NCBI GenBank assembly: GCA_011176545.1
Contig: DUEN01000021.1
Span: 1 to 64,000 of the forward strand
DNA: 64,000 nt
Reading direction: 5' to 3'
Source of the DNA: Caldilineae bacterium
GTDB taxonomy: Bacteria; Chloroflexota; Anaerolineae; DUEN01
Under the pieces are notes generated by a model, which was not told where the DNA came from, made no database searches, and saw nothing but the letters and a program-made list of their open reading frames with translations. The translations under genes and the position numbers were made by a program. Positions 35,064 through 54,296 of this stretch are shown piece after piece (position 1 is the first letter of the stretch; every line of letters starts with the position of its first letter).

Positions 35064-35390
35064 ATCGCTGACTTCTATGCGTTGGATATCTCCTGGAGGC
35101 ACGTGGCGATCCAGTTCACTGTATTGTTGCATCGGACAGTATCTCCCAGAACGTGTCCGAGAAAGACCGACTGAGTCACCATTAGGCCTTAGAGAAACCG
35201 ATAGGAACACGATGTACCGTGCTTTGCCATCAATCGCCTCCGCTTCGAGCGGAGGGATCTTCAGTCAGGCTCACAGGTGAGCCGTTCCCTTAATCGGATT
35301 TTGTCCCTAGCCACACCTTTATCCATAATCGGCCGTTCCACAGAAGTTGTGGATCATAACTCAATCCTTATAAGAGGGGAGGTCATCATC

Positions 35391-36740
35391 ATGCCACACA
35401 TCTCATGGAGGGCAGCTGCGATTCTCTCGTTCATCGCCCTCATCACGTTAGGTTGTACGCAGCCGGTCCCCCTACTGATCACAACGCCTACTCCCCCCAC
35501 ACCGACACCGGTTCCACCGACCGCTACGCCTTCGGCGCCTGTCGCCACGTCACCTGGCGCCGATGACGCCTGTATGGAGTGTCACAGAGAGGTGACACCT
35601 TCCCTCGTAAGGGACTTCCAGCAGGGGAAGATGTACGAGGTGGGCATCCGTTGTAGCAATTGTCATGGCTCTGAACACACCAGTGCTGAGGATACTGCCA
35701 AGGCTCAGATCCCCACAGCCAAGACATGCGCGACCTGCCACCCGACTCAGGTGACACAGTTTGAAGCTGGTAAACATGCCCTCGCCTGGGTCGCCATGAA
35801 CGCCATGCCCACGACTCATATGCAGCCTATGGAGCTGATCCAGGGCAAGAAGGGCTGCGGTGGCTGTCATAAGATCGGGCTCAAGAGCGAAGAGGAGATT
35901 CAGGCGATGCAGGCGGCGGGAGAGACGTACGGCACGGCCTCGTGTGACTCCTGCCACACGCGACACGCCTTCTCCGTCGCCGAGGCGCGCCAGCCTGAAG
36001 CCTGCGCGACCTGCCACATGGGCTTTGATCACCCGCAATGGGAGATGTGGTCAACCTCTAAGCACGGCGTACGGTTCCTCCTGAAGCGCCAGGGAGTGCT
36101 TTCCCCAGAGGTCGCCGCGCCGGCCTGTCAGGATTGCCATATGCAGGATGGCGACCACGAGGTCCGGACGGCCTGGGGATTCCTGGCCGTGCGCCTGCCG
36201 CTGCCGGATGACCCGCAATGGGCAGATGATCGGGTGACGATCCTCAAGGCGCTGGGCGTGCTGGACCCCGAGGGTAATCCAACGGGCCGACTCGACGCGG
36301 TCAAGGCCGCGGACGTGGCGCGCCTGACGGAAGAAGACTGGCAGACAGAACGCGAGAAGATGCTCACGGCCTGTAGCCAATGTCACGCCCAAGCATATGC
36401 CGAGGCCGAATTGAAGAAGGCTGACGAGATGATCCGGGAGGCTGATCATCTGATGGCGGAGGCCATCCGGATCGTGGCCGGGCTCTACGAGGACGGGCTG
36501 TTGGAGAAGCCGGAGCACTTCTCGTACAACTACCCCGATCTGCTCGCCTTCTACGAAGTCAATCACCCCATCGAACAGAAGCTCTTCAAGATGTTCCTGG
36601 AATATCGGATGCGCACCTTCCAGGGCGCGTTCCACGCGAATCCGGATTACACCTTCTGGTACGGCTGGGCTGAAATGAAAGCGACACTGGCTGAGATCAA
36701 AGCCATGGCAGCGGAGTTGAGGGGAGGGGGCGCTCCCTGA
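35391..36740 (+). CDS. Octaheme cytochrome c lipoprotein, hydroxylamine-oxidoreductase-like
   Basis: Exported lipoprotein of 449 residues: a hydrophobic leader with lipobox ITLGC (lipidated Cys near 21), a PT-rich tether ([16 protein letters not shown]), then eight CxxCH heme sites (CMECH, CSNCH, CATCH, CGGCH, CDSCH, CATCH, CQDCH, CSQCH). The order and the segments GFDHPQWEMWSTSKHG and AWGFLAVRLPLPDD resemble the HAO-like multiheme family, and a helical C-terminal domain (FHANPDYTFWYGWAE) follows as in that family. Whether the P460-crosslinking tyrosine is present cannot be settled by eye, so oxidation or reduction of N-compounds, or pure electron transfer, all remain open. GGGGAGGT sits seven bases before ATG 35391; the frame upstream to 35277 is not signal-like. 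Confidence 0.85.
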   Translation: MPHISWRAAAILSFIALITLGCTQPVPLLITTPTPPTPTPVPPTATPSAPVATSPGADDACMECHREVTPSLVRDFQQGKMYEVGIRCSNCHGSEHTSAEDTAKAQIPTAKTCATCHPTQVTQFEAGKHALAWVAMNAMPTTHMQPMELIQGKKGCGGCHKIGLKSEEEIQAMQAAGETYGTASCDSCHTRHAFSVAEARQPEACATCHMGFDHPQWEMWSTSKHGVRFLLKRQGVLSPEVAAPACQDCHMQDGDHEVRTAWGFLAVRLPLPDDPQWADDRVTILKALGVLDPEGNPTGRLDAVKAADVARLTEEDWQTEREKMLTACSQCHAQAYAEAELKKADEMIREADHLMAEAIRIVAGLYEDGLLEKPEHFSYNYPDLLAFYEVNHPIEQKLFKMFLEYRMRTFQGAFHANPDYTFWYGWAEMKATLAEIKAMAAELRGGGAP

Positions 36741-39018: not shown

Positions 39019-39261
39019 TATGAACGCAGCGCATTCCTTCACATGAGGCCCTGAACCTGAGGCCTTGAACCTCCTGTCGGCTTCCAGCCGACTTCCATGG
39101 TTTAGCCTGCAATTTATCCGCGGGCGAAATGGCAGAGAGAAAAACTGTCCCGACAGCTATTAGAGGATGGCTCGCACGGCATGGATAGGGGCCCACCCCG
39201 CGCGGATAGCAGCAACTTTGCCAAGGGAGGTTTCTGCCCACGCAGGAGAGGAGGTGGGATT

Positions 39262-39756
39262 GTGCAGCAACCGGAGCAGCGGGGATCCCGGGAGGAGTCG
39301 GCAGGAATTGGGCGTCGCGGGTTCGTACGTTACCTCCTGGGTTTCTCCTTTATCAGCACCATCGTCGGCGTGTTGACCCCGATCATCGGCTACCTATGGC
39401 CTCCGGCTCGCCCGAGTGGCACCCAGGGCGGCCGGACCCTGGTGGGCACGGTGGAGGACTTCCCGCCAGGTTGGGGCAAGATCATCCCTGTGAACAACAA
39501 GCCGGTGATCGTGGTGAACACGTCACAAGGCATCCGCGTCTTCTCCGCCATCTGCACGCACTTGGGGTGTATCGTGCTGGAAAAGGAGCCCAGCTTATCG
39601 TATATCAAATGCCCCTGCCACGATGGACGATTCAATCCCATCAACGGGGAGGTGATCGCTGGCCCGCCACCGCGCCCACTGCCCGCATATGAGTTTAGCA
39701 TTGAGGAAGGCAAGATCTATGTAGGCGAGCCACTGAGCCCGCTGTACGGTGGATAA
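39262..39756 (+). CDS. Rieske iron-sulfur protein of a quinol-oxidising bc-type complex
   Basis: A 164-residue membrane-anchored Rieske protein. The N-terminus has twin arginines (GRRGFVRYLLGFS) then a transmembrane helix (about 24-46), consistent with Tat export. The cluster boxes CTHLGC (98-103) and CPCHDGRF (117-124) supply the two Cys and two His ligands plus the disulfide cysteines. The start is GTG 39262, seven bases after GGAGG; no suitable ATG exists close by. The cytochrome b pair follows, so it feeds electrons from quinol to a high-potential acceptor. Confidence 0.93.
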   Translation: MQQPEQRGSREESAGIGRRGFVRYLLGFSFISTIVGVLTPIIGYLWPPARPSGTQGGRTLVGTVEDFPPGWGKIIPVNNKPVIVVNTSQGIRVFSAICTHLGCIVLEKEPSLSYIKCPCHDGRFNPINGEVIAGPPPRPLPAYEFSIEEGKIYVGEPLSPLYGG

Positions 39757-39861
39757 GCGAGCAGCCATGGTGACGGTCCCGTGCTCACCCGACCGGACCA
39801 CCGCGCTCGCGGATAGGTGCTCATGCGCAAGATCTCGTGGTGACTGTCCTGGAGGTGCCTG

Positions 39862-40617
39862 ATGCAGGAGAGGGCTCCCTTCTACAGTGTATGGGCCCTT
39901 CGGGCCTGGCATTGGCTGGACAAGCGTTATGCACTGCAGCGCCTCTTTCACGCGCTGGTGGACGTACCCATCCCGCGTACGGCGCGGACGCTCTATTTAG
40001 GTGGCATTACCCTTTTCCTCTTCTTCGTCCAGGCAGTCACCGGCATTCTGCTCACCCTCTACTATCGCCCTACGCCCGAAGAAGCTTATGACAGCATCCT
40101 GTTCATCATGAACGATGTCCGATTCGGTTGGCTGATCCGCAGCATCCATGCCTGGGGCGCCAACCTGATGATCCTCTTCTGCATTCTTCACATGCTTCGT
40201 GTCTTCTTTCAAGGGGCCTACAAGGCTCCACGTGAGATGACCTGGGTGGTGGGGATGCTGCTATTGATCATCACACTGGGCTTCGGCTTCACGGGATACC
40301 TTCTCCCGTGGGATCAACGTGCCTTCTGGGCCACCACGGTCGGGACGGAGATCGCAGGAGCGATTCCAGTGGTGGGAAGATTCGCGATGGAGTTCTTGCG
40401 AGGTGGCCCGGAGATCTCCGCATTGACCTTGAGCCGGTTCTTCGGGACCCATGTACTGGCATTGCCCGTCACCCTGGCTGCCCTCATCCTGGTCCACCTG
40501 GTCATGATTCACCAACAGGGCCTGTCTGACCCTACCGAGCCAGCATGGCCTGCGAGTGATCCACCGAAAGAGGTAGTCACCAGTGACTCACAGCGGGAGG
40601 ATGTCGGTGAGCACTGA
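39862..40617 (+). CDS. Cytochrome b6-type N-terminal subunit
   Basis: Diheme b subunit with four helices (251 residues). Heme ligands are H96, H110, H197 and H212. The second pair is 15 apart, the spacing of cytochrome b6 rather than bc1-type cytochrome b. The conserved GYLLPWDQ loop of the quinol site is present. A C-terminal hydrophilic tail follows. GGAGGTGCCTG precedes the ATG. Its stop overlaps the next frame, so the split N- and C-terminal subunits are co-translated. Confidence 0.93.
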   Translation: MQERAPFYSVWALRAWHWLDKRYALQRLFHALVDVPIPRTARTLYLGGITLFLFFVQAVTGILLTLYYRPTPEEAYDSILFIMNDVRFGWLIRSIHAWGANLMILFCILHMLRVFFQGAYKAPREMTWVVGMLLLIITLGFGFTGYLLPWDQRAFWATTVGTEIAGAIPVVGRFAMEFLRGGPEISALTLSRFFGTHVLALPVTLAALILVHLVMIHQQGLSDPTEPAWPASDPPKEVVTSDSQREDVGEH

Positions 40618-41020
40618 GAAACACCAGCCAGAAGATCAGGGAACGAGAGGTCGATCGCAACTGCCGTTTTTCCCAAACTACTTGCTGGACGAGGTGATCG
40701 CCTGGTATGTCATGCTGGCCGTCATCATCGTGCTGGCCTCTCTGTTCCCGGCTGGATTGGAAGAGCGGGCAGATCCCTTTAAGACGCCTCCCCACATCAA
40801 GCCGGAGTGGTATTTCCTGGCCCTCTATCAGGGGCTGAAGCTCGTCCCGCGCGTTATCGGCGTGCTCATGCCGGTGGTAGGCATCCTGGTATTGTTTCTC
40901 CTGCCCTTCATCGATCGGAACCCATACAAGACATGGCGGCGCCGCCCGATCGCCATCGGCCTGAGTCTCGTCATCCTGGCGGCCGTGGTCGTCTTAACCA
41001 TCTGGGGCTGGATGAGTTAG
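40607..41020 (+). CDS. Cytochrome b C-terminal subunit (subunit IV-like)
   Basis: Completes the quinol-oxidation site, 137 residues with three helices. The PEWYF motif of the Qo site is intact (HIKPEWYFLALYQGLKLVP). GTG 40607 lies six bases after GGAGG; ATG 40601 abuts the site, so GTG is preferred. It overlaps the end of the cytochrome b6 gene. No petA/c1-like gene follows; a 13-heme cytochrome takes that place. Confidence 0.9.
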   Translation: MSTEKHQPEDQGTRGRSQLPFFPNYLLDEVIAWYVMLAVIIVLASLFPAGLEERADPFKTPPHIKPEWYFLALYQGLKLVPRVIGVLMPVVGILVLFLLPFIDRNPYKTWRRRPIAIGLSLVILAAVVVLTIWGWMS

Positions 41021-41035
41021 CAAGGAAGGGGAGAA

Positions 41036-42709
41036 ATGGTGGTTCAAAGACGTACCCTCCTTGTCATGGTCAGGCGAGGGGGTTGGCTCTTGGCCTTCGT
41101 GTTCCTGTCACTCGCCATCGCTGGCGACGTGTATGCACAGCCTCCTATTCCCACGATTCCGCATTCGCTGGAAGGCCGAGCCGCCTGTCTCGCTTGTCAT
41201 GAGGCGGGCGTAGGCGGAGCCCCGGTGATTCCTGCCAACCACACGGGTCGCACCAACGAGATGTGCACTACCTGTCACGTGGCCGCCAGCGAAGCGCCGC
41301 CTCAGCCACCTCTCATCCCTCATACGCTGGTCGGGCGCTCTGACTGTCTATTCTGTCACGAAAAGGGGGTCGGTGGAGCGACGGTGATCCCATCTGATCA
41401 TGCGGGGCGCACGAGCGAGACGTGTCGGAATTGCCATCAGCCTGGCGCCCCCATAGAGGCGCCTCCCACACCTGCGGGGCCGCCGACGCCAACTCCCGTC
41501 CCCATCCCGACGCCCATCGTACACCCTGTGAGACGTGGGCAAAATACCTGTGCGACGTGCCATCGGACGCTCGACGAGAAGCAGGCGCGTATCGTAGATG
41601 AGTGGGAGAAGAGCATTCACGCGGCTCGCAATGTTAGCTGTGCGGATTGCCATGGCGGCGATCCGGGAGCTGAGGGGATCAATGAGTCTATGGCTCCTGC
41701 CGCAGGCTATATCGGCGTGCCGGATCGAGTGAAAGTCCCGGGGCTGTGCGCGTCTTGCCACGCCGACCCGGTACGGATGCGCCAGTATGATCTGCCAACG
41801 GATCAATTCGCCAAGTATCAGGAGAGCATCCACGGACGCGCTCTGTATGAAAATGGCGATCCCAACGTGGCGACCTGCGTTGACTGTCACGGCTCTCACA
41901 AGGTCCCTGAGGTGAACGACCCCAGCGCCGACGTATACCCCATCAACGTGCCCAAGTTATGTGCTCGCTGTCACGCCGACGAGCAACTGATGGCCCCCTA
42001 TGCGATCGCCACGAATCAGTACGATCTGTACCGGAAGAGTGTCCATGGCATCGCGTTGCTGGAACGTCAAGACCTGAGGGCTCCCAGTTGTGCGACGTGC
42101 CATGGCACGCACGGCGCAGCGCCACCGGGATTTGCCGAGGTGGCCAATGTCTGCGGTAGCTGCCATTCCGCCACTCAGGACTATTATGCACGGGGGGCAC
42201 ATGCCCAGGCCGGCGATGCTGGGCCCAAATGCGTCACGTGCCATGGACGCTATGACGTCACCAAGCCCGATGAGAGCCTCTTCGTGGGAACGGAGGAGCG
42301 ACATTGCGGAAATTGCCATCCTCCAGACTCGCCCATTGGAAAAGAGGTGGCCCAGATCAGAGAGGCCATCCTTGAGGCGGCCGCGACCCTGGCAAAGGCT
42401 GAAGAGCTAGTCTCCCAGGCCGCCAGCCGTGGCATGATCGTGGCTTATGAGGAGACGAAGTTATCGGAAGCCCGAACCGGGCTGATCTCTGCTCGAGCTG
42501 CCCAGCATCAGGTCGCGCTGGATGTGGTGACGAAGCTCACCGAGGCCAGCGTAGCCGCCAGTCAAGAGGTGATGGAAGCGGCCGAACAGAAGTTGCGGGA
42601 AAGTGTGTTCCGTCGTCAGGCGATGGTAGTCGCCGTAGTAGCCATCTCTATAACCGTCGGCGCCCTGTATAGCATCAAACGAGAACTGGATCGGCGACTT
42701 GAGCCATAG
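41036..42709 (+). CDS. Tridecaheme membrane-anchored cytochrome c
   Basis: A 557-residue exported cytochrome with a signal/anchor (about 10-35, ending VYAQPP). Two diheme modules of the form IPH-GR-CxxCH-DH-GR-CxxCH come first (40-140), then a PT linker. Nine more CxxCH sites follow (13 in all) in repeated units with Y-x-x-S-[IV]-HG spacers, then a helical stretch (about 440-525) and a C-terminal transmembrane helix. Directly after the Rieske/cytochrome b genes, it is the likely electron acceptor of that complex. No enzymatic motif recognised. Confidence 0.87.
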   Translation: MVVQRRTLLVMVRRGGWLLAFVFLSLAIAGDVYAQPPIPTIPHSLEGRAACLACHEAGVGGAPVIPANHTGRTNEMCTTCHVAASEAPPQPPLIPHTLVGRSDCLFCHEKGVGGATVIPSDHAGRTSETCRNCHQPGAPIEAPPTPAGPPTPTPVPIPTPIVHPVRRGQNTCATCHRTLDEKQARIVDEWEKSIHAARNVSCADCHGGDPGAEGINESMAPAAGYIGVPDRVKVPGLCASCHADPVRMRQYDLPTDQFAKYQESIHGRALYENGDPNVATCVDCHGSHKVPEVNDPSADVYPINVPKLCARCHADEQLMAPYAIATNQYDLYRKSVHGIALLERQDLRAPSCATCHGTHGAAPPGFAEVANVCGSCHSATQDYYARGAHAQAGDAGPKCVTCHGRYDVTKPDESLFVGTEERHCGNCHPPDSPIGKEVAQIREAILEAAATLAKAEELVSQAASRGMIVAYEETKLSEARTGLISARAAQHQVALDVVTKLTEASVAASQEVMEAAEQKLRESVFRRQAMVVAVVAISITVGALYSIKRELDRRLEP

Positions 42710-43062: not shown

Positions 43063-44295
43063 ATGCCGACCTTTAAACGCATCCGCAGAGCGCTGATCGT
43101 AGTAGGTGTGCTGGTGCTGGCATTGGTGCTGGCGGCCTGTGCCGCTCAGGCGGGGCCACCGGGGCCGCAAGGACCACCTGGCCCACAAGGACCGCCAGGA
43201 CCGGCTGGTCCTCCCGGACCCGAGGGACCACAGGGACCGCCCGGTCCTCCTGGGCCAGCGGGCGCCGAGTATGTGGGGGCGGAAACGTGCGGCTCGTGCC
43301 ATCAGGAGATCTACGAGGTCTTCATGAAGTCCGGGCACGCCTGGAAGCTCAACCCGGTCGTGGATGGCCAGCCGCCCGAGTACCCGTTCACCGAGGTGCC
43401 CAACCCGCCGGAGGGCTACACCTGGGATGATATCTCCTACGTCATCGGCGGCTATAACTGGAAAGCCCGCTTCATCGATAAGAACGGCTACATCATCACC
43501 GGCCCTGATGAGAACGCGAAGACGCAATATAACTTCGCCAATCCCATCGTGGGCAAGGAGGCCGGGTGGGTCGCCTATCATCCTGGGGAAGAGAAGCCCT
43601 ACAACTGCGGTACCTGCCATACCACCGGGTACAAGCCGGAGGGCCATCAGGACGACATGCCTGGCATCGTCGGCACCTGGGCGGAGCCCGGCATCAAGTG
43701 TGAGCGGTGCCATGGTCCGGGTAGCTTACACGTGGCCAACCCGTATGGCGTGCGCATGGTGGTCGATCGGGACTCCGAGCTCTGTGGCGAGTGCCACCTG
43801 CGCGGCGATCCGACCCAGGTCGACGCCAAGGGCGGGTTCATCAAGCATCATGAGCAGTATGAGGAGCAACTGCAGAGCAAGCACGTCGCCCTGGATTGTG
43901 TGACGTGCCATGACCCGCACGCTGGCGTCGTCCAGCTGCGCCAGGCGGGTGAGCCGACGACGCGGCTGCAGTGCGAGAACTGCCACTTCGAGGAGGCGAG
44001 GAACCAGAGCGAGGTCCACAAAGCCGTGGGTGTGCAGTGTATCGACTGCCATATGCCGCGCATCGTCAAGAGCGCGTGGGGCGACCCGGAGAAGTACACC
44101 GGCGACATCCGCTCCCACTTGATGGCCATCGATCCGGAGCAGGAGGGCCAGTTCACAGAGGATGGCAAGCTCGCTCTCTCGCAGATCTCGTTAGACTTCG
44201 CTTGTCGGCACTGCCACAGAGAAGGTGGCAAGGCCACGCCGAAGACGGACGATCAACTGCGAGAGCGAGCCACGGACTACCACGCGCGACCATAG
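43063..44295 (+). CDS. Octaheme cytochrome c lipoprotein with a collagen-like linker
   Basis: Exported lipoprotein of 410 residues. Lipobox LAAC (Cys26) is followed by twelve Gly-Pro-X triplets (about 31-66), a collagen-like rod where sister proteins carry PT-rich tethers. Eight CxxCH sites follow (CGSCH, CGTCH, CERCH, CGECH, CVTCH, CENCH, CIDCH, CRHCH). A non-heme insert (about 85-170; [18 protein letters not shown]) separates hemes 1 and 2, as in cytochrome c554/NrfA-like multiheme folds. Followed by a strong terminator. A rigid or trimeric stalk is inferred from the repeat alone. Confidence 0.85.
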
Positions 44296-47185: not shown

Positions 47186-49561
47186 TTGAACACGATCCTA
47201 ACCACGCTGAGCTCCAATCGTACATATTTCTTTGTATTCGGTACCATCATCGTCATCGTGGTCGGATCCCTGCTTTTCGCTGGAGGTGTCACCGTCTGGG
47301 AATACACCAACAGCTCTGAGTTCTGCGGGACGACCTGCCACACGATGCCGCCGGAATATACCGCCTACAAGATCTCACCCCATGCCCGCGTCCCATGTGT
47401 GGATTGTCACCTGGGCATGGAAAGCGTGCTCACCATTGTGCCGCGGAAGGTGAAGGAGGTCCGGCATGTCCTCTTCGCTCTGACTCAGAACTATGAGACA
47501 CCTATCTACGTCAAAAGCCTGCGTCCCGCGCGATACACCTGCGAGAAGTGCCATAACCCCGAAAAGTTCTCCGACGATAGCCTGCGCGTGATCCGACACT
47601 ACAGCACGGACGAGAAGAATAGCGAGACTCGAATCTATCTCGTGATGAAAACCGGCGGCGGGACCCGGCGCGAAGGACTGGGCAAGGGCATCCACTGGCA
47701 TATCGAGAACGAGGTCTGGTATATCGCCACCGACGAGCATAAGCAGAACATCCCTTATGTACGTCAGGTGGATGAGAACGGGCAGGTTATCGAGTATTTC
47801 GACGTGACAGCCGCTCTGCCGTCCGATTTCGTAGCCAGGAACAGTGATAAACTGCGTCGCATGGACTGCATTGATTGTCACAATCGCATCTCTCACACGT
47901 TCCGCTCACCCGAGCGGGCCATGGATTGGGTCCTTTCCCGTCGGCTGATCGACAGGAATATCCCCTACATCAAGGCAAAAGGGGTTGAGGTGCTCAGTGC
48001 GACGTATGAGAGTCACGACGAAGCAGCCGCGGCCATTGAGCGGCTTGAGGAATGGTATCGTGCCAATTATCCAGAGTGGTATCAGGTCCCCGATAATCAG
48101 GCGAAACTGAAAAAGGCTATCGAGGAGCTAAAGCGCATCTACTCGGAAACGGTCTTCCCGGAAATGGACGTAGGATGGGAGACCCATCCCGATAATATCG
48201 GACATCTCGAGTTCCCCGGATGTTTCCGGTGTCATGATGGGAAACACCTCAGCCCCCAGGAACAAGCTATCCGACTGGAGTGTAACATCTGTCACTCCAT
48301 CCCGGAGGTCGTAGGCCCTGGTGATCCTGCACCGGTCATCTCTGTGGAGAAGCCCAACGAGCCTGATTCGCACAAGGATACCCAATGGCTGGCCCGACAC
48401 CGATTCGAGTTCGATCAGACTTGCACGGCGTGCCATGATGTGGCCAATCCTGGAGGAGCCGATAACTCGAGTTTCTGCTCGAACAGTGCCTGCCATGGTG
48501 TCGAATGGAGATATGCGGGGCTGGATGCCCCGGCAATCGCCCAGAAGTTGAAGCCGGCGAAGGAGAAGGCGCCTATCGGGGTACCCGCACAGGTACCACA
48601 TCCGGTGGGGCCACGCACGGACTGCGAGATCTGCCACGGGCTTCAGAAGGTACATCCTTATCCAGAGAATCACACGCAATTCGATGCAACCCAGTGCACG
48701 GGTTGCCATCCGGTTATCCAGGAGGCCCTCATCGCACCCTCGGGGAGCCCAACGCCCGAGGCAGTTACTGGGCCCGCTCCCATTCCACACCCTCTGGAAG
48801 GCCGGGAGGATTGCCTAATCTGCCACGCGGTGGGTAGCGGTGTCAAACCGGCACCGCCAGATCACGAGGGGCGCACATCAGATCTATGCCAAGCGTGTCA
48901 CAAACCAGCGGCGACCCCGACGCCTGCGAGCGGTCGCCCCACCAACACACCGACACCCACACCGGCGCAGCCCGTGAGCACGCCGACGCCCCAGGCAACC
49001 GTTGGGCCCGCCTCTATCCCCCATCCCCTGGAAGGTCGGGAGGACTGCCTGATCTGTCACGCCGTGGATAGCGCCGTGAAGCCAGCACCGCCAGATCACG
49101 AGGGGCGCACGTCAGATCTATGCCAAGTGTGTCACAAACCAGCGGCGACCCCGACGCCTGCGAGCGGTCGCCCCACCAACACACCGACACCCACACCGGC
49201 GCAGCCCGTGAGCACGCCGACACCTCAGGCAACCGTTGGGCCCGCCTCTATCCCCCATCCCCTGGAAGGTCGGGAGGACTGCCTGATCTGTCACGCCGTG
49301 GATAGCGCCGTGAAGCCAGCGCCCCCCGATCATGAGGGACGAACATCGGATCTGTGCCAGGCATGCCATGCAGCCGCCCCGACGTCCCAGGCTGGCGAGG
49401 AGGAAGTGGCCTCGCCACCAAGTATGCCACAGCACCCTCTAGAGGTTGGGGATGACTGTCTGCTTTGTCACGCGGTGGATAGTCAGCTCAAGCCCGCGCC
49501 TGAGGATCACGAGGGACGCTCCGTGGAGTCGTGTCAGGTGTGCCACAAACCCGAATCGTGA
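47186..49561 (+). CDS. NapC/NirT-like 18-heme cytochrome c
   Basis: A 791-residue protein with an N-terminal membrane anchor (about 14-38) and a NapC/NrfH-like head: its first site is C47-GTT-C51-H, a CX3CH motif. Canonical CxxCH sites follow, one CX4CH (C431 to H437) and, from about residue 470, five diheme PH-GR-CLICH-DHEGR-CQACH modules joined by PT linkers. Total: sixteen CxxCH plus the two variant sites. The start is TTG 47186, eight bases after AGGAGG. It could be a quinol dehydrogenase that delivers electrons along a repeating heme wire. Ends at a strong terminator. Confidence 0.85.
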   Translation: MNTILTTLSSNRTYFFVFGTIIVIVVGSLLFAGGVTVWEYTNSSEFCGTTCHTMPPEYTAYKISPHARVPCVDCHLGMESVLTIVPRKVKEVRHVLFALTQNYETPIYVKSLRPARYTCEKCHNPEKFSDDSLRVIRHYSTDEKNSETRIYLVMKTGGGTRREGLGKGIHWHIENEVWYIATDEHKQNIPYVRQVDENGQVIEYFDVTAALPSDFVARNSDKLRRMDCIDCHNRISHTFRSPERAMDWVLSRRLIDRNIPYIKAKGVEVLSATYESHDEAAAAIERLEEWYRANYPEWYQVPDNQAKLKKAIEELKRIYSETVFPEMDVGWETHPDNIGHLEFPGCFRCHDGKHLSPQEQAIRLECNICHSIPEVVGPGDPAPVISVEKPNEPDSHKDTQWLARHRFEFDQTCTACHDVANPGGADNSSFCSNSACHGVEWRYAGLDAPAIAQKLKPAKEKAPIGVPAQVPHPVGPRTDCEICHGLQKVHPYPENHTQFDATQCTGCHPVIQEALIAPSGSPTPEAVTGPAPIPHPLEGREDCLICHAVGSGVKPAPPDHEGRTSDLCQACHKPAATPTPASGRPTNTPTPTPAQPVSTPTPQATVGPASIPHPLEGREDCLICHAVDSAVKPAPPDHEGRTSDLCQVCHKPAATPTPASGRPTNTPTPTPAQPVSTPTPQATVGPASIPHPLEGREDCLICHAVDSAVKPAPPDHEGRTSDLCQACHAAAPTSQAGEEEVASPPSMPQHPLEVGDDCLLCHAVDSQLKPAPEDHEGRSVESCQVCHKPES
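48782..49370 (+). repeat. 234-bp tandem repeats encoding diheme modules
   Basis: Units start at 48782, 49016 and 49250, exactly 234 bp (78 codons) apart; the third is partial. Units one and two are nearly identical at the DNA level, including silent positions and the PT linker, indicating recent duplication. A more diverged module follows near 49425. Confidence 0.9.
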
Positions 49562-49685: not shown

Positions 49686-52600
49686 CTACTCGGGAGGCAC
49701 AGGAGCCCGGTATTCGATGTGGATGTACGGCCTCACCGAGTCATCCCAGTACTCGCTGCTGGCCAGGTTGAAGCGGGTCCAGCTTTCCCCCGTAGCCCGC
49801 AGCATCAGGCCCAGGTTGGTGCTGGGATCGGCCACCCACTGCTGCACCAGCGGCGTGATGTCGATCGTCACCCAGCGACCGGCATCCGCGGCGCTGATGG
49901 TCGTCGAGCCGACCACGGTGGGGTCGTAGTCACCGCCAGCGGCGGCCCACGGCGCGTTCCACGTTGTCGTGGGCTCATCCCAGGCGCTCAGGACCTGATG
50001 GACGGTCAGGTCGTGCGGGCTACCACCACCGGCGAACGAGTCCACCCAGACGTACAGGGTGGCCTGATCCACCGGATAGGGAGCCGGGATGCTCGACACA
50101 TCCGCCCAGAGCACGGCCCGCAGCGTGTCGTTGGCGCCCACGTGCAGCTTGGGCCACTCGCCGAAGTTCGTGTCAGGTTCACCGCCATGCATATGGGTGT
50201 CCATCACCACGGGCACATCTGTGCTCATCGGCTCGCTGAAGACGGCGGCCCGGATGCGCACCGGGATCGCCAGGGCGCCAGGCGCCATAGATGGCCCCAG
50301 CAGCAGCAGGCCCTCCGCGGATTCACCCTCAGCCAACGCCTTAGTCCAATGCAAGTTGAAGGTGATCTCCTGACCGGGGGCGAACGGCCCTTCGGGCACA
50401 TCCGTCACCTGAAGGTCGTATCCCTGCACCGCGTTGACGGTGAGCTCGAACGTCGTCACGCCCGTCGGGACGGACCACCCGTGCACCGCGATCAGATACT
50501 GCCCATCGGGCGGGAAGGTGATGCTGACGAACTCATCGGCCGTAGGCGTGAAGGAGGACCCGAGCAGGATCAGGTTCTCGCCATCTACGTAGTACACGTA
50601 GAGATCCAGATCATCGCCCGCCTGCCCGTGTATCTCCACGTCCAGCCGCGCGCCATGCTCGATGGTCACGGTGCGAGTGTATGAGGCGGTGCTGGGGTCG
50701 TCCGGATCATCCTGATACACCACCTGATCCGGATAGACCTCTGGCTTGCCCAGGCCGAACCCCTCCGCGACCAGGTCCGGCAGGGGCACGGTGGCGTTCA
50801 CCGTCACCTGCACGGTGCCACTATCGGTCACCGCCACCTCATCGATGACGGAGGGCTCGGCCATGATCAGACCCGCCTGGCCGGTGACGCTCTCGTAGAT
50901 GGCATCACCACCGAAGATGACGTTATGCAGGGCGATGACGTGGAGCCCTTCCCGCGCCGGGGCGGTCACGATCTCCCGATTGAGACCCGTGGCCGTGTCC
51001 CACAGCCATCGACCGCCACCTTGATTGGTATCAGCGCTGCGCCCCACCGTGTCCAGCGTATACGGACCGTAGTATTCGGGCTCCTCATCGCTGTAATCGG
51101 AGGGCACAGGCCCCATGATGATGGTGTCGATATCCGTCCCTGGGTAATCCCAGCGGGTATCCACGATGAGGCTGCTGTTCTCGGGGACCTCCGGGATATC
51201 GACCATGTAGAATCGCCAGTCGCCGTTGGCCGCCTGGCCAACCCAGTCCTGACCGGGATACACGCGGCCGTTGTCATACGGCCCCTCGGAAGCAGGCGGA
51301 CCTCCGAAGGTGAAGTTAGGGCTGAAGGCCGCCACGTTGACGAGGGCCGGGATCACGCTTGTGTGAGAACCGTCATCCACCCGAATGCTCCCCTCGTAGA
51401 TGCCGTATGCGGCCGAGGACGGCACGGTCATCGTGGCCTCGAAGGTAGCAGAGCCGCCGGCCGGCACGGTCAGGCTGGTGGGCTCCACGCTCAGCCACGG
51501 CCACGGCGCATGCTGATAGAATTCCACCTTGAACTTGAAGTGGGTCTGTGGGATCGCCTCGTTGCGCTGGCGATGGATTAGCCCGAGATAGATGCCGTCA
51601 TGCATGCGCTCCAGCGGACGCTGTACAGTCATATGCCCGCCGATGTTATAGGGTCGCCAGTAAGTGAAGAGGACGAGCTCTCGCTCATCCATCTCACCAG
51701 CGTCGCGATCGACCGCGCCGTCGCCGTCCAGATCCTCCCACAGATCACCATCCCCGTTGACGTCCGTCCAGTCATAGATAGCGCCGTACCACCGCTGATC
51801 CCAGTTCAGATCGCCATCTGGATCGAACTCATCCAGCGGTATGGTCCAGCGTACGATCATCAGGTCCGTCCCTTCCGGGATATCTGGCGTCAGATCGCGC
51901 AGATAATCCGGCATCGGGAACTCGTACGGCCCCTCATCACTTACTGGAGCGGTGGTCCAATCGAAGTTCATCTCGCCGATCTTGACCAGACGGTCAGTCG
52001 CGATGGTCACGACCTGATCCGTGGGGCCAGGGTTGTAGACGGTGAAGGCCTTGGTGCTGGACTGGCCGGGGAACATGATGTTAGCGAAGCCCGGGTAGTT
52101 GACGCCGCGATAGTCGCCGAAGCTCCAGGAATCCGGCTCCACATAGACGCCACCCAGGCCAGCGGCGATGTCAGTGGCCCGATCGGCGTTCACCCGACCA
52201 GCACCCTGGACCAACACATCATAGTTGCTGTCATCGGCGCCAGCCATCAGGATCGCGCGGGCGGTTTCATAGTCAGGCCAGACGCCATGTACCTGCCGAT
52301 AGGCATCGTACACCAGCGCCAGGTTGCCCGCGGTCACCGGCGCCGAGCGGCTGGTGCCACCCCAGGTCTGCCACGCCGTCCAGCCATCTCCGACCTCGTT
52401 CAGGGAGAGCGCTCCAGCGCCCCACGCGCCGTTGGCGACGACGTGCACGCCAACTTCACCTCGCGCGCTGGGCCCACGGCTGGAGAAGGAGCTCACATCC
52501 CCATACGTGATCTGATCCATCGAGGCCAGCTCCATCGCGCCGAACTCGGAGGAGCCGTATTGGGTGGAGGCACCCACGCCAATCACGTTCATGGGGCTGG

Positions 52601-54296
52601 GCGGCGTGACGGTCCCATAGCCGGGGGCGTAGTTACCGGTGGAAAAGAGGATGCTCAATGCCGGGTTCATCCGTTGGATACTATCCAGCAACCGATCCCG
52701 TTCCTGCCATCCATCGTTGTCTCCGCCCGGATTGCCCCAGGAGTTAGTAACGATCTGAATGTCATCTTCAGTGCCGGGGAAGCCGTCATACCCCAGAGCG
52801 GAGAACAGGAAGGCGTCCTCATCGATGGGGGAGACGTAGAAGTTGCCGTTGACCGTTAACTTGACGTCCTTCCCCCCGCCGACGACCATGCCCGTGCCAG
52901 GTGTGCCGTCGCCGGCCGGCTTCCAGTCCGGCGCGTTGCCATCGATTACGCCCTGACCGGCGACGTTGGAGGCGACCAACTGGCCGTGATCCCCGCCAGC
53001 CTCAGTGAAATCCTGGACGATGAAGGCAACCAGGTCCCCATTACCAGGCTCGCCGAAGTCCTGCACGCCGTTGCCGGCCACCCCCATCCCCCATAGCCAG
53101 TCCGCGGTGGGGATTGGGTTGACGCCATCAGCGATGAAGTAGACCAGGCCACCGGACACGTCCGCGTACCCGTCGCCGTCCAGGTCCTTACAGGCCGTCT
53201 CGTCACCCTTGCGCACCGGCTTCTCATCGGTGAAGTCGTAGTCGTTGTCCAGGTCCACGTATACCGTGTCGTATACGCCAGGCTCGTTCTCGTCCACGAC
53301 CAGCACGGCGACCCGCTCATCATACCAGTATTCCTGCAGGGTCCTATCGGGGTGGCTGCCGATGTGGTAGACGCCGCTCTTGCTGGTACCAGGGACACGG
53401 TAGACATGTCCTTCCGGATCGGTGGAGCCGATGGGCGTGTAGATCAGGCTGTAGGTCCCATCGCCGTTGTCGATCAGCTCGTCGCCCGAGCGCGTCGTCG
53501 AGGTGTCGGCGTAATCGGCCTCCCCTCCGGCGACGAAGCTCGTGCCCCAGAAATGATCCAGGACCCAAAGGAGCATGGAGTAACTATCGAACATCTCGGG
53601 CCAGCCGTAGTATGGCGAACTCGGGTCCGTGATGCGAGCCTGGGTGCCTTCCAGGTCTGGATGGCAGAAGTCAACGCCCGAGTCGTTCACCATGACTTTG
53701 ACGCCCTGCCCGGTGAACCCCTTCTCCCAGGCGGCCTTGGATTTGTGGTTATCCAGGACGTCGAACCACCCGGAGATGCCCTGAGCGGCCTCAGGACGTG
53801 CCCGTTGGGCCTTCGCGCCGCTGCGGATGGCCGCCAGGCGGGCCTGAATCGCGTCGCGATCGGGCGAGCGAGCGATCTCTGGTTCCACCGGCTTCGGGGG
53901 CTCATAGACGTTAGCCAGCGGGCGCACGGCGACCACTGTGTCGAGGGAGGCGATCTTCGGGATCACCCCGGCCTTAGCCGTACCCACGATCAGTTGCAGT
54001 CCGTTGGGATACACAAACGGGCGCACCACCTGTCGTACCAGGTACTGGCTGAGGTCCGTGCCCGCTTTGACGTATACCAGTATATCGATCGTGTCCCGAG
54101 CCGCTGCTCCCTCCAGTTGCTTGGCCAGTTTGGTGTGGATCTTACGCGCGGCCACGTCACTGGCCGCGCTCACTGTCGTCGGCCCTCCCCAATGGGGCGC
54201 GGCAGTCGAATCCGCCTGAGCCGAGATAGCGAACAACGGCAACACCAGGACGACGATCAGCAACACTGCCGTGGCTCGAGAGATGCTTACTCTCAT
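49686..54296 (-). CDS. Secreted S8 (subtilisin-like) serine protease, 1536 residues
   Basis: Large exported protease: a signal peptide (about 8-28, cut near AQA), an I9-like propeptide (about 50-130), and a subtilase domain with Asp205 (NDSGVDF), His437 (GDHGQLVAS), oxyanion Asn518 (TNSWGNPGG) and Ser649 (GTSRSAP). About 230 residues separate Asp and His, far more than usual, including DxDxDG calcium-type loops (DLDGDGYAD). Downstream come beta-sandwich domains, another DLDGDGAVD loop, a pre-peptidase C-terminal domain (about 1210-1330), and a DNRLRE-type C-terminal domain (about 1400-1530). No cell-wall anchor is seen, so it is probably free or glycan-bound. Nutrient proteolysis is likely. 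Confidence 0.9.
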   Translation of the reverse strand: MRVSISRATAVLLIVVLVLPLFAISAQADSTAAPHWGGPTTVSAASDVAARKIHTKLAKQLEGAAARDTIDILVYVKAGTDLSQYLVRQVVRPFVYPNGLQLIVGTAKAGVIPKIASLDTVVAVRPLANVYEPPKPVEPEIARSPDRDAIQARLAAIRSGAKAQRARPEAAQGISGWFDVLDNHKSKAAWEKGFTGQGVKVMVNDSGVDFCHPDLEGTQARITDPSSPYYGWPEMFDSYSMLLWVLDHFWGTSFVAGGEADYADTSTTRSGDELIDNGDGTYSLIYTPIGSTDPEGHVYRVPGTSKSGVYHIGSHPDRTLQEYWYDERVAVLVVDENEPGVYDTVYVDLDNDYDFTDEKPVRKGDETACKDLDGDGYADVSGGLVYFIADGVNPIPTADWLWGMGVAGNGVQDFGEPGNGDLVAFIVQDFTEAGGDHGQLVASNVAGQGVIDGNAPDWKPAGDGTPGTGMVVGGGKDVKLTVNGNFYVSPIDEDAFLFSALGYDGFPGTEDDIQIVTNSWGNPGGDNDGWQERDRLLDSIQRMNPALSILFSTGNYAPGYGTVTPPSPMNVIGVGASTQYGSSEFGAMELASMDQITYGDVSSFSSRGPSARGEVGVHVVANGAWGAGALSLNEVGDGWTAWQTWGGTSRSAPVTAGNLALVYDAYRQVHGVWPDYETARAILMAGADDSNYDVLVQGAGRVNADRATDIAAGLGGVYVEPDSWSFGDYRGVNYPGFANIMFPGQSSTKAFTVYNPGPTDQVVTIATDRLVKIGEMNFDWTTAPVSDEGPYEFPMPDYLRDLTPDIPEGTDLMIVRWTIPLDEFDPDGDLNWDQRWYGAIYDWTDVNGDGDLWEDLDGDGAVDRDAGEMDERELVLFTYWRPYNIGGHMTVQRPLERMHDGIYLGLIHRQRNEAIPQTHFKFKVEFYQHAPWPWLSVEPTSLTVPAGGSATFEATMTVPSSAAYGIYEGSIRVDDGSHTSVIPALVNVAAFSPNFTFGGPPASEGPYDNGRVYPGQDWVGQAANGDWRFYMVDIPEVPENSSLIVDTRWDYPGTDIDTIIMGPVPSDYSDEEPEYYGPYTLDTVGRSADTNQGGGRWLWDTATGLNREIVTAPAREGLHVIALHNVIFGGDAIYESVTGQAGLIMAEPSVIDEVAVTDSGTVQVTVNATVPLPDLVAEGFGLGKPEVYPDQVVYQDDPDDPSTASYTRTVTIEHGARLDVEIHGQAGDDLDLYVYYVDGENLILLGSSFTPTADEFVSITFPPDGQYLIAVHGWSVPTGVTTFELTVNAVQGYDLQVTDVPEGPFAPGQEITFNLHWTKALAEGESAEGLLLLGPSMAPGALAIPVRIRAAVFSEPMSTDVPVVMDTHMHGGEPDTNFGEWPKLHVGANDTLRAVLWADVSSIPAPYPVDQATLYVWVDSFAGGGSPHDLTVHQVLSAWDEPTTTWNAPWAAAGGDYDPTVVGSTTISAADAGRWVTIDITPLVQQWVADPSTNLGLMLRATGESWTRFNLASSEYWDDSVRPYIHIEYRAPVPPE

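What the first reader, a model, noticed from the sequence alone, without database searches (positions are those of the whole stretch)
48782..49370. Recent 234-bp tandem duplication of diheme modules within one gene
Units at 48782, 49016 and 49250 have an exact 234-bp period and near-identity even at silent sites and in the PT linker. The number of heme pairs could change by slippage or recombination, varying wire length between strains.
Basis: seen in the sequence. Interest (0 to 1): 0.75.

Follow-up and report, generated by a model that had tools for sequence, protein, structure and literature searches.

The report
Recently duplicated heme-pair module in cytochrome
A membrane cytochrome gene in a Chloroflexota bacterium has recently copied one 234-base piece of its own tail, adding one pair of predicted heme sites on a flexible proline/threonine tether, and related species carry 0 to 5 such pairs, so the number of electron-carrying groups in this protein really does change in evolution.

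Summary
The repeat is real but more specific than described. In gene 47186-49561 (NapC/NrfH-like membrane cytochrome, 18 predicted heme motifs) only one block, 48851-49086, recurs near-identically 234 bp downstream (236 bp, 4 differences, 3 silent). Outside that block the same units are saturated with silent changes. The middle unit is a hybrid, with the head of unit 3 and the tail and linker of unit 1. That is the signature of one in-register unequal crossover (or template switch) between two older modules. Across Chloroflexota the 8-heme core is conserved, while the C-terminal tail holds 0-5 two-heme modules (PF09699, Paired_CXXCH_1). The window species and its congener G001 each carry their own recent expansion, and three species of another genus differ by one module in two different genes. 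Module number is therefore evolutionarily labile. Strain-level variation could not be tested: one genome per species is held and no reads are available. The 37-residue Pro/Thr linkers suggest tethered beads, as in Geobacter PgcA, rather than a packed wire; this is inference. Verdict: a real, recent duplication in a lineage-variable array; a new variant of a known kind, moderately interesting.

The parts
47186..49561 (+). Gene: membrane-anchored NapC/NrfH-like multiheme cytochrome, 791 aa; 16 CXXCH + one CX3CH + one CX4CH = 18 predicted heme sites
47186..48499 (+). Conserved core (to about residue 438): N-terminal membrane helix (predicted ~12-41) and 8 heme motifs, invariant in 17 aligned orthologs
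48590..48709 (+). Diheme module m1, the old anchor module; its orthologs group together in the module tree (weakly supported)
48779..48901 (+).
49013..49135 (+).
49247..49369 (+).
49424..49546 (+). Diheme module m5, older and divergent (61-66% aa to m2-m4)
48851..49084 (+). Duplicated 234-bp segment, copy A (tail of m2 + Pro/Thr linker + head of m3)
49085..49318 (+). Duplicated 234-bp segment, copy B (tail of m3 + Pro/Thr linker + head of m4)
49085..49086 (+). Inferred recombination junction: m3 switches from m4-like to m2-like with only 2 bp common to both parents
   Evidence: mismatch map; alignment
48902..49012 (+). Pro/Thr-rich linker between m2 and m3 (37 aa)
   Evidence: low confidence (28-39) in the AF2 model
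49136..49246 (+). Pro/Thr-rich linker between m3 and m4 (37 aa), copy of the previous one

Best explanation
The gene encodes a quinol-dehydrogenase-like (NapC/NrfH-type) membrane cytochrome with a conserved 8-heme core and a C-terminal tail of self-contained two-heme modules joined by flexible linkers. The tail evolves by gain, loss and exchange of whole modules through recombination between the repeats. In this genome one recent in-register unequal crossover (or template switch) between two old modules duplicated 234 bp and added one heme pair plus one linker. Most likely the tail is a string of tethered bis-His diheme beads that carries electrons from the core outward to partner cytochromes or an outside acceptor; more beads mean more reach and more electron storage. 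Shown here: the duplication, its hybrid structure, its youth relative to the species split, purifying selection on modules, variable module number among relatives. Inferred: heme attachment, bis-His ligation, flexibility, direction and purpose of electron flow.
For: Block boundaries and hybrid unit. Block dS 0.05 against saturation (pS 0.74) between the cores of window and congener G001; G001's own modules m3-m5 differ by pS 0.26-0.35, so both expansions postdate the split. Module tree: window m2-m4 form one supported group (97/86), G001 m3-m5 another (91/74). Module counts 0-5 on a well resolved core tree, at least 11 changes among 34 rows. Counts of 3, 3 and 4 also occur in megabase contigs or a closed chromosome (L036, L037, L033). 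Congeneric differences in two genes. Other recent duplications: G073 122 bp/2 mm and 249 bp/3 mm, G001 period 201. All 38 modules keep a His ahead of each CXXCH, mostly 8 residues before. NrfH is the only PDB sequence hit, 2.7e-6. Gene order cytochrome 44541 - b561 - this gene conserved in many relatives.
Against: No reads, no second strain and no experiment. The genome is a draft of 239 contigs. AF2 gave only a poor model (mean pLDDT 52), and the single-module model had no PDB fold match. Two gene-conversion events could give the same hybrid. Same total (5) in window and G001 could mean selection for that number rather than free variation. The outward direction of electron flow is not shown by any data here.
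Confidence: 0.72

Rival explanations
1. Assembly artefact: a misjoin or mis-resolved repeat inserted an extra unit, or collapsed others.
For: Draft metagenome-style assembly of 239 contigs; tandem repeats are error-prone.
Against: The longest exact repeat is 95 bp, shorter than common assembly k-mers or reads, and the copies differ at 4 places. At the junction the two parent modules share only 2 bp exactly, too little for an overlap-driven misjoin. Relatives independently show similar recent duplications, and variable counts occur in closed or megabase assemblies.
Confidence: 0.07
2. Concerted evolution: an older set of three modules was homogenised by gene conversion, so copy number did not change recently.
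For: Hybrid units also arise by conversion; G001's modules are homogenised too.
Against: Two separate conversions (head from m4; tail and linker from m2), with matching boundaries exactly one period apart, are needed; one crossover explains the block of 236 bp = period + 2. Counts do differ between close relatives.
Confidence: 0.18
3. The array number is selectively neutral: modules come and go by drift and the tail works the same with 1 or 5.
For: Counts vary widely (0-5) and one clade replaces the array by a single PSCyt1-like monoheme domain.
Against: Modules themselves are under strong purifying selection: m2 vs m4 differ at 26 of 30 synonymous sites but only 3 nonsynonymous differences; every heme and distal His is kept.
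Confidence: 0.3
4. The tail acts mainly as an electron store (capacitor) or partner-docking surface inside the cell envelope, not as an outward relay.
For: GSU1996, built of repeated c7 domains, is discussed as a capacitor (PMC10138318); adjacent cytochromes in the operon carry the same module.
Against: Long Pro/Thr linkers resemble those that give reach in PgcA (PMC11520253); no direct data either way.
Confidence: 0.3

Closest known systems
PgcA of Geobacter sulfurreducens (tethered-heme cytochromes; PMC11520253, PMC5732950)
   Same: Heme domains joined by Pro/Thr-rich repeats; number of heme motifs differs among homologs (one in G. metallireducens, six in G. bemidjiensis); tethered diffusion over up to 18 nm demonstrated there.
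   Different: PgcA is an extracellular lipoprotein of monoheme domains; here the beads are diheme PF09699 modules on a membrane NapC/NrfH-like 8-heme core in Chloroflexota. No homology claimed.
GSU1996-type dodecaheme cytochromes (four triheme c7 domains; PMC10138318)
   Same: Array of repeated small multiheme domains in one chain.
   Different: c7 domains there have three hemes, short linkers and a continuous packed heme chain; here two hemes per module and long linkers.
NapC/NirT/NrfH quinol dehydrogenases (PF03264, TIGR03153; PDB 2j7a)
   Same: N-terminal membrane helix and first hemes align (Pfam 45.8 bits, above cut-off 24.1; PDB 2j7a at 2.7e-6).
   Different: Below the NrfH equivalog cut-off (53.1 vs 134.2 bits); larger 8-heme core and added module tail.
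Magnetochrome domain repeats (PMC3971196)
   Same: Small c-type heme domains duplicated independently in different proteins after their divergence.
   Different: Different, monoheme domain; only chance-level Pfam matches (E about 0.09, 2 of 14 modules).

Membership tests
Paired_CXXCH_1 (PF09699) | Two CXXCH motifs in a ~41-residue unit scoring with the model | tested here: met
   All 14 modules scanned match it, best E 1.2e-5; the window module scores 22.9 against gathering 20.6.
NapC/NirT family (PF03264) | N-terminal region scores above the gathering cut-off | tested here: met
   45.8 bits vs 24.1, residues 13-109.
NrfH equivalog (TIGR03153) | Score above the curated cut-off | tested here: not met
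   53.1 vs 134.2 bits.
PgcA-type tethered cytochromes | Heme domains separated by Pro/Thr-rich linkers | tested here: met
   Two 37-aa Pro/Thr linkers between modules; low AF2 confidence there.
PgcA-type tethered cytochromes | Single-heme domains | tested here: not met
   Modules have two CXXCH each.
PgcA-type tethered cytochromes | Freely moving domains, extended in solution | not testable with these tools
   Needs SAXS/NMR.
GSU1996-type c7 arrays | Triheme c7 domains with short linkers | tested here: not met
   Two hemes per module; single module scores below the PF14522 cut-off (16.0 vs 24.8), though the whole protein passes it.
Bis-His diheme module (structural claim) | One distal His available per heme | tested here: met
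   38 of 38 modules have a non-motif His before each CXXCH, at -8 in 26 and 33 cases; ligation itself not shown.
Strain-variable (VNTR-like) locus | Different copy number among strains of one species | not testable with these tools

The most novel reading that the evidence does not exclude
The tail is a tunable locus: module number varies between strains or within populations by ongoing recombination between near-identical units, so cells of one species carry electron tethers of different length and heme content, and selection by acceptor distance or type sets the number.
Probability: 0.15. Interest if true: 0.75.

Novelty: new variant of a known kind. Interest (0 to 1): 0.45.

Why it matters
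It gives a natural series: one conserved membrane cytochrome core with 0, 1, 2, 3, 4 or 5 two-heme modules in different species, with recent, datable additions. That makes the question of what heme number and tether length do for electron transfer testable with natural variants, and shows how long multiheme proteins can grow, by recombination that adds whole self-contained heme units with their linker in frame.

Tried and rejected
(1) Three near-identical units: rejected; only one 236-bp block is near-identical. (2) Whole-protein AlphaFold2 model: mean pLDDT 52, not used for fold search. (3) Single-module model (pLDDT 77) gave no PDB match by Foldseek. (4) PDB profile search with the module: only chance-level hits to many c-type cytochromes, NapB at E 0.049; not pursued as homology. 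(5) The first module alignment, A2 (used), had a typing slip in one row, three residues after the module; corrected in A3, effect on those searches judged negligible. (6) Exact DNA search for the block in viral contigs: none. (8) Literature searches for strain-level heme-module number variation or this Chloroflexota cytochrome found no description; the library holds open papers only.

Full report
OBSERVATION. The gene 47186-49561 (+) reads as 791 aa from a TTG start. It has 16 CXXCH motifs plus one CX3CH (C47-H52) and one CX4CH (C431-H437) that are invariant in 17 aligned relatives, so 18 predicted heme sites. TRF finds an array 48769-49359, period 234, 2.5 copies. Comparing each base with the one 234 bp on shows a sharp pattern: 48778-48850 has 18 mismatches in 73, 48851-49086 has 4 in 236, and 49087-49137 has 16 in 51 (Fisher p 1.3e-13). 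Silent sites: 3 changes in 62.7 synonymous sites inside the block, 13 of 17 left of it, saturated right of it.

WHAT HAPPENED. The middle module (m3, 49013-49135) has the head of m4 and the tail and linker of m2. If two older modules x (m2) and y (m4) recombine out of register by one unit, the product is x, a hybrid (y-head + x-tail), y, with a self-match of one period plus whatever the parents share at the junction. The observed self-match is 236 = 234 + 2 bp. The parents share only 2 bp exactly at the switch point (49085-49086) but are clearly alike around it, so pairing was probably guided by the homologous modules. The parents are old: m2 and m4 differ at 26 of 30 synonymous sites but are 93% identical in protein, which shows purifying selection on the module. 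Gene conversion in two steps is possible but less economical.

IS IT AN ARTEFACT? The genome is a draft of 239 contigs. The longest exact repeat is 95 bp, and the 2-bp junction overlap makes an overlap misjoin unlikely. Reads are not available here, so this is argued, not shown; extra identical copies could be collapsed.

RELATIVES. Searches of 60 relatives, the family and GTDB contigs found orthologs across Chloroflexota, with record titles Anaerolineae, Anaerolineales and Caldilineae. In all, the core is conserved and the C-terminal tail varies: one module in G052, G017 and Caldilineae J102; two in G003 (same family), CG2_30_64_16 and the partial G041; three in Dive96_bin3.112, H5_CFX5, H5_CFX7, G033 and G014; four in the closed chromosome CP070811.1; five in the window and in congener G001 (plus one extra CXXCH there). 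One clade has no array and a single PSCyt1-like heme domain instead. On a core tree of 34 rows the module count changes at least 11 times.

AGE AND INDEPENDENCE. The module tree groups window m2-m4 (97/86) and G001 m3-m5 (91/74) separately, with the first modules m1 falling together only weakly (few columns, so most deep forks are unresolved). Synonymous divergence between the cores of the two species is saturated (pS 0.74), against 0.048 inside the duplicated block and 0.26-0.35 among G001's last three modules. Both expansions, or homogenisations, are therefore younger than the species split.

CLOSER COMPARISONS. In genus g4 (G004, G042, G073) this gene has 2, 1 and 2 modules, and G073's two are 98% identical over 122 bp. 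A second cytochrome gene of the same genus has 3, 2 and 3 N-terminal modules, in G073 with a 249-bp block at period 153 and 3 mismatches. G176 has about seven modules in a relative of window gene 41036, where the window has two. Strain level is untested.

MODULE AND MECHANISM. Each ~41-aa module matches PF09699. All 38 modules examined carry a His ahead of each CXXCH, usually 8 residues before, enough for bis-His ligation of both hemes (inference). The core aligns with NapC/NirT and weakly with NrfH, so it probably takes electrons from the quinol pool (inference from the family). Neighbours are other multiheme cytochromes and a b561 protein that carry the same module; the order cytochrome 44541 - b561 - this gene is kept in many relatives. 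In the AF2 model the modules have confidence about 50-70 and the linkers about 28-39, which fits beads on flexible strings but is weak evidence. The best-characterised working analogue is PgcA, where Pro/Thr-tethered heme domains pass electrons by tethered diffusion over up to 18 nm (PMC11520253) and heme number varies between homologs (PMC5732950). I therefore read the tail as a tether of diheme relays rather than a packed wire.

VERDICT. Real, recent, and part of recurrent module turnover; process and architecture each have known precedents, and the combination was not found described in the papers searched. New variant of a known kind.

Noticed in passing
window 43063-44292 (+): Multiheme cytochrome with a collagen-like (GPP/GPQ)n stretch after its N-terminal signal (PF01391); the G001 relative and one HyVt-442 protein have it too. 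A collagen stalk could trimerise or extend a cytochrome.
   Followed up: partly
window 35277-36737 (+): HAO-like octaheme cytochrome (PF13447; weak resemblance to hydrazine dehydrogenase, 80 bits vs cut-off 900) at the head of the cytochrome cluster.
   Followed up: no
window 39181-42706 (+): Rieske, cytochrome b6, cytochrome b C-terminal part and a multiheme cytochrome form a block that is absent at this position in congener G001 (L056), though present together in other relatives such as L034 and L036.
   Followed up: partly
L012 (G024:C463), ORF on the - strand: Four PSCyt1-like heme domains in one protein, two of them recently duplicated (period 270, 238 bp, 13 mismatches): a parallel intragenic heme-domain duplication.
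   Followed up: partly
L113 (G073:C1), N-terminal part of the cytochrome ORF: Three near-identical diheme modules, 249 bp at period 153 with 3 mismatches: a more recent-looking array than the window's.
   Followed up: partly
window 47186-48499: Core carries one CX3CH and one CX4CH heme motif, both invariant in the 17 aligned orthologs; easily missed by CXXCH counts.
   Followed up: partly
window 49686-54293 (-): Large secreted subtilase with pre-peptidase C-terminal and CBM96 domains, convergent with the cytochrome gene.
   Followed up: no
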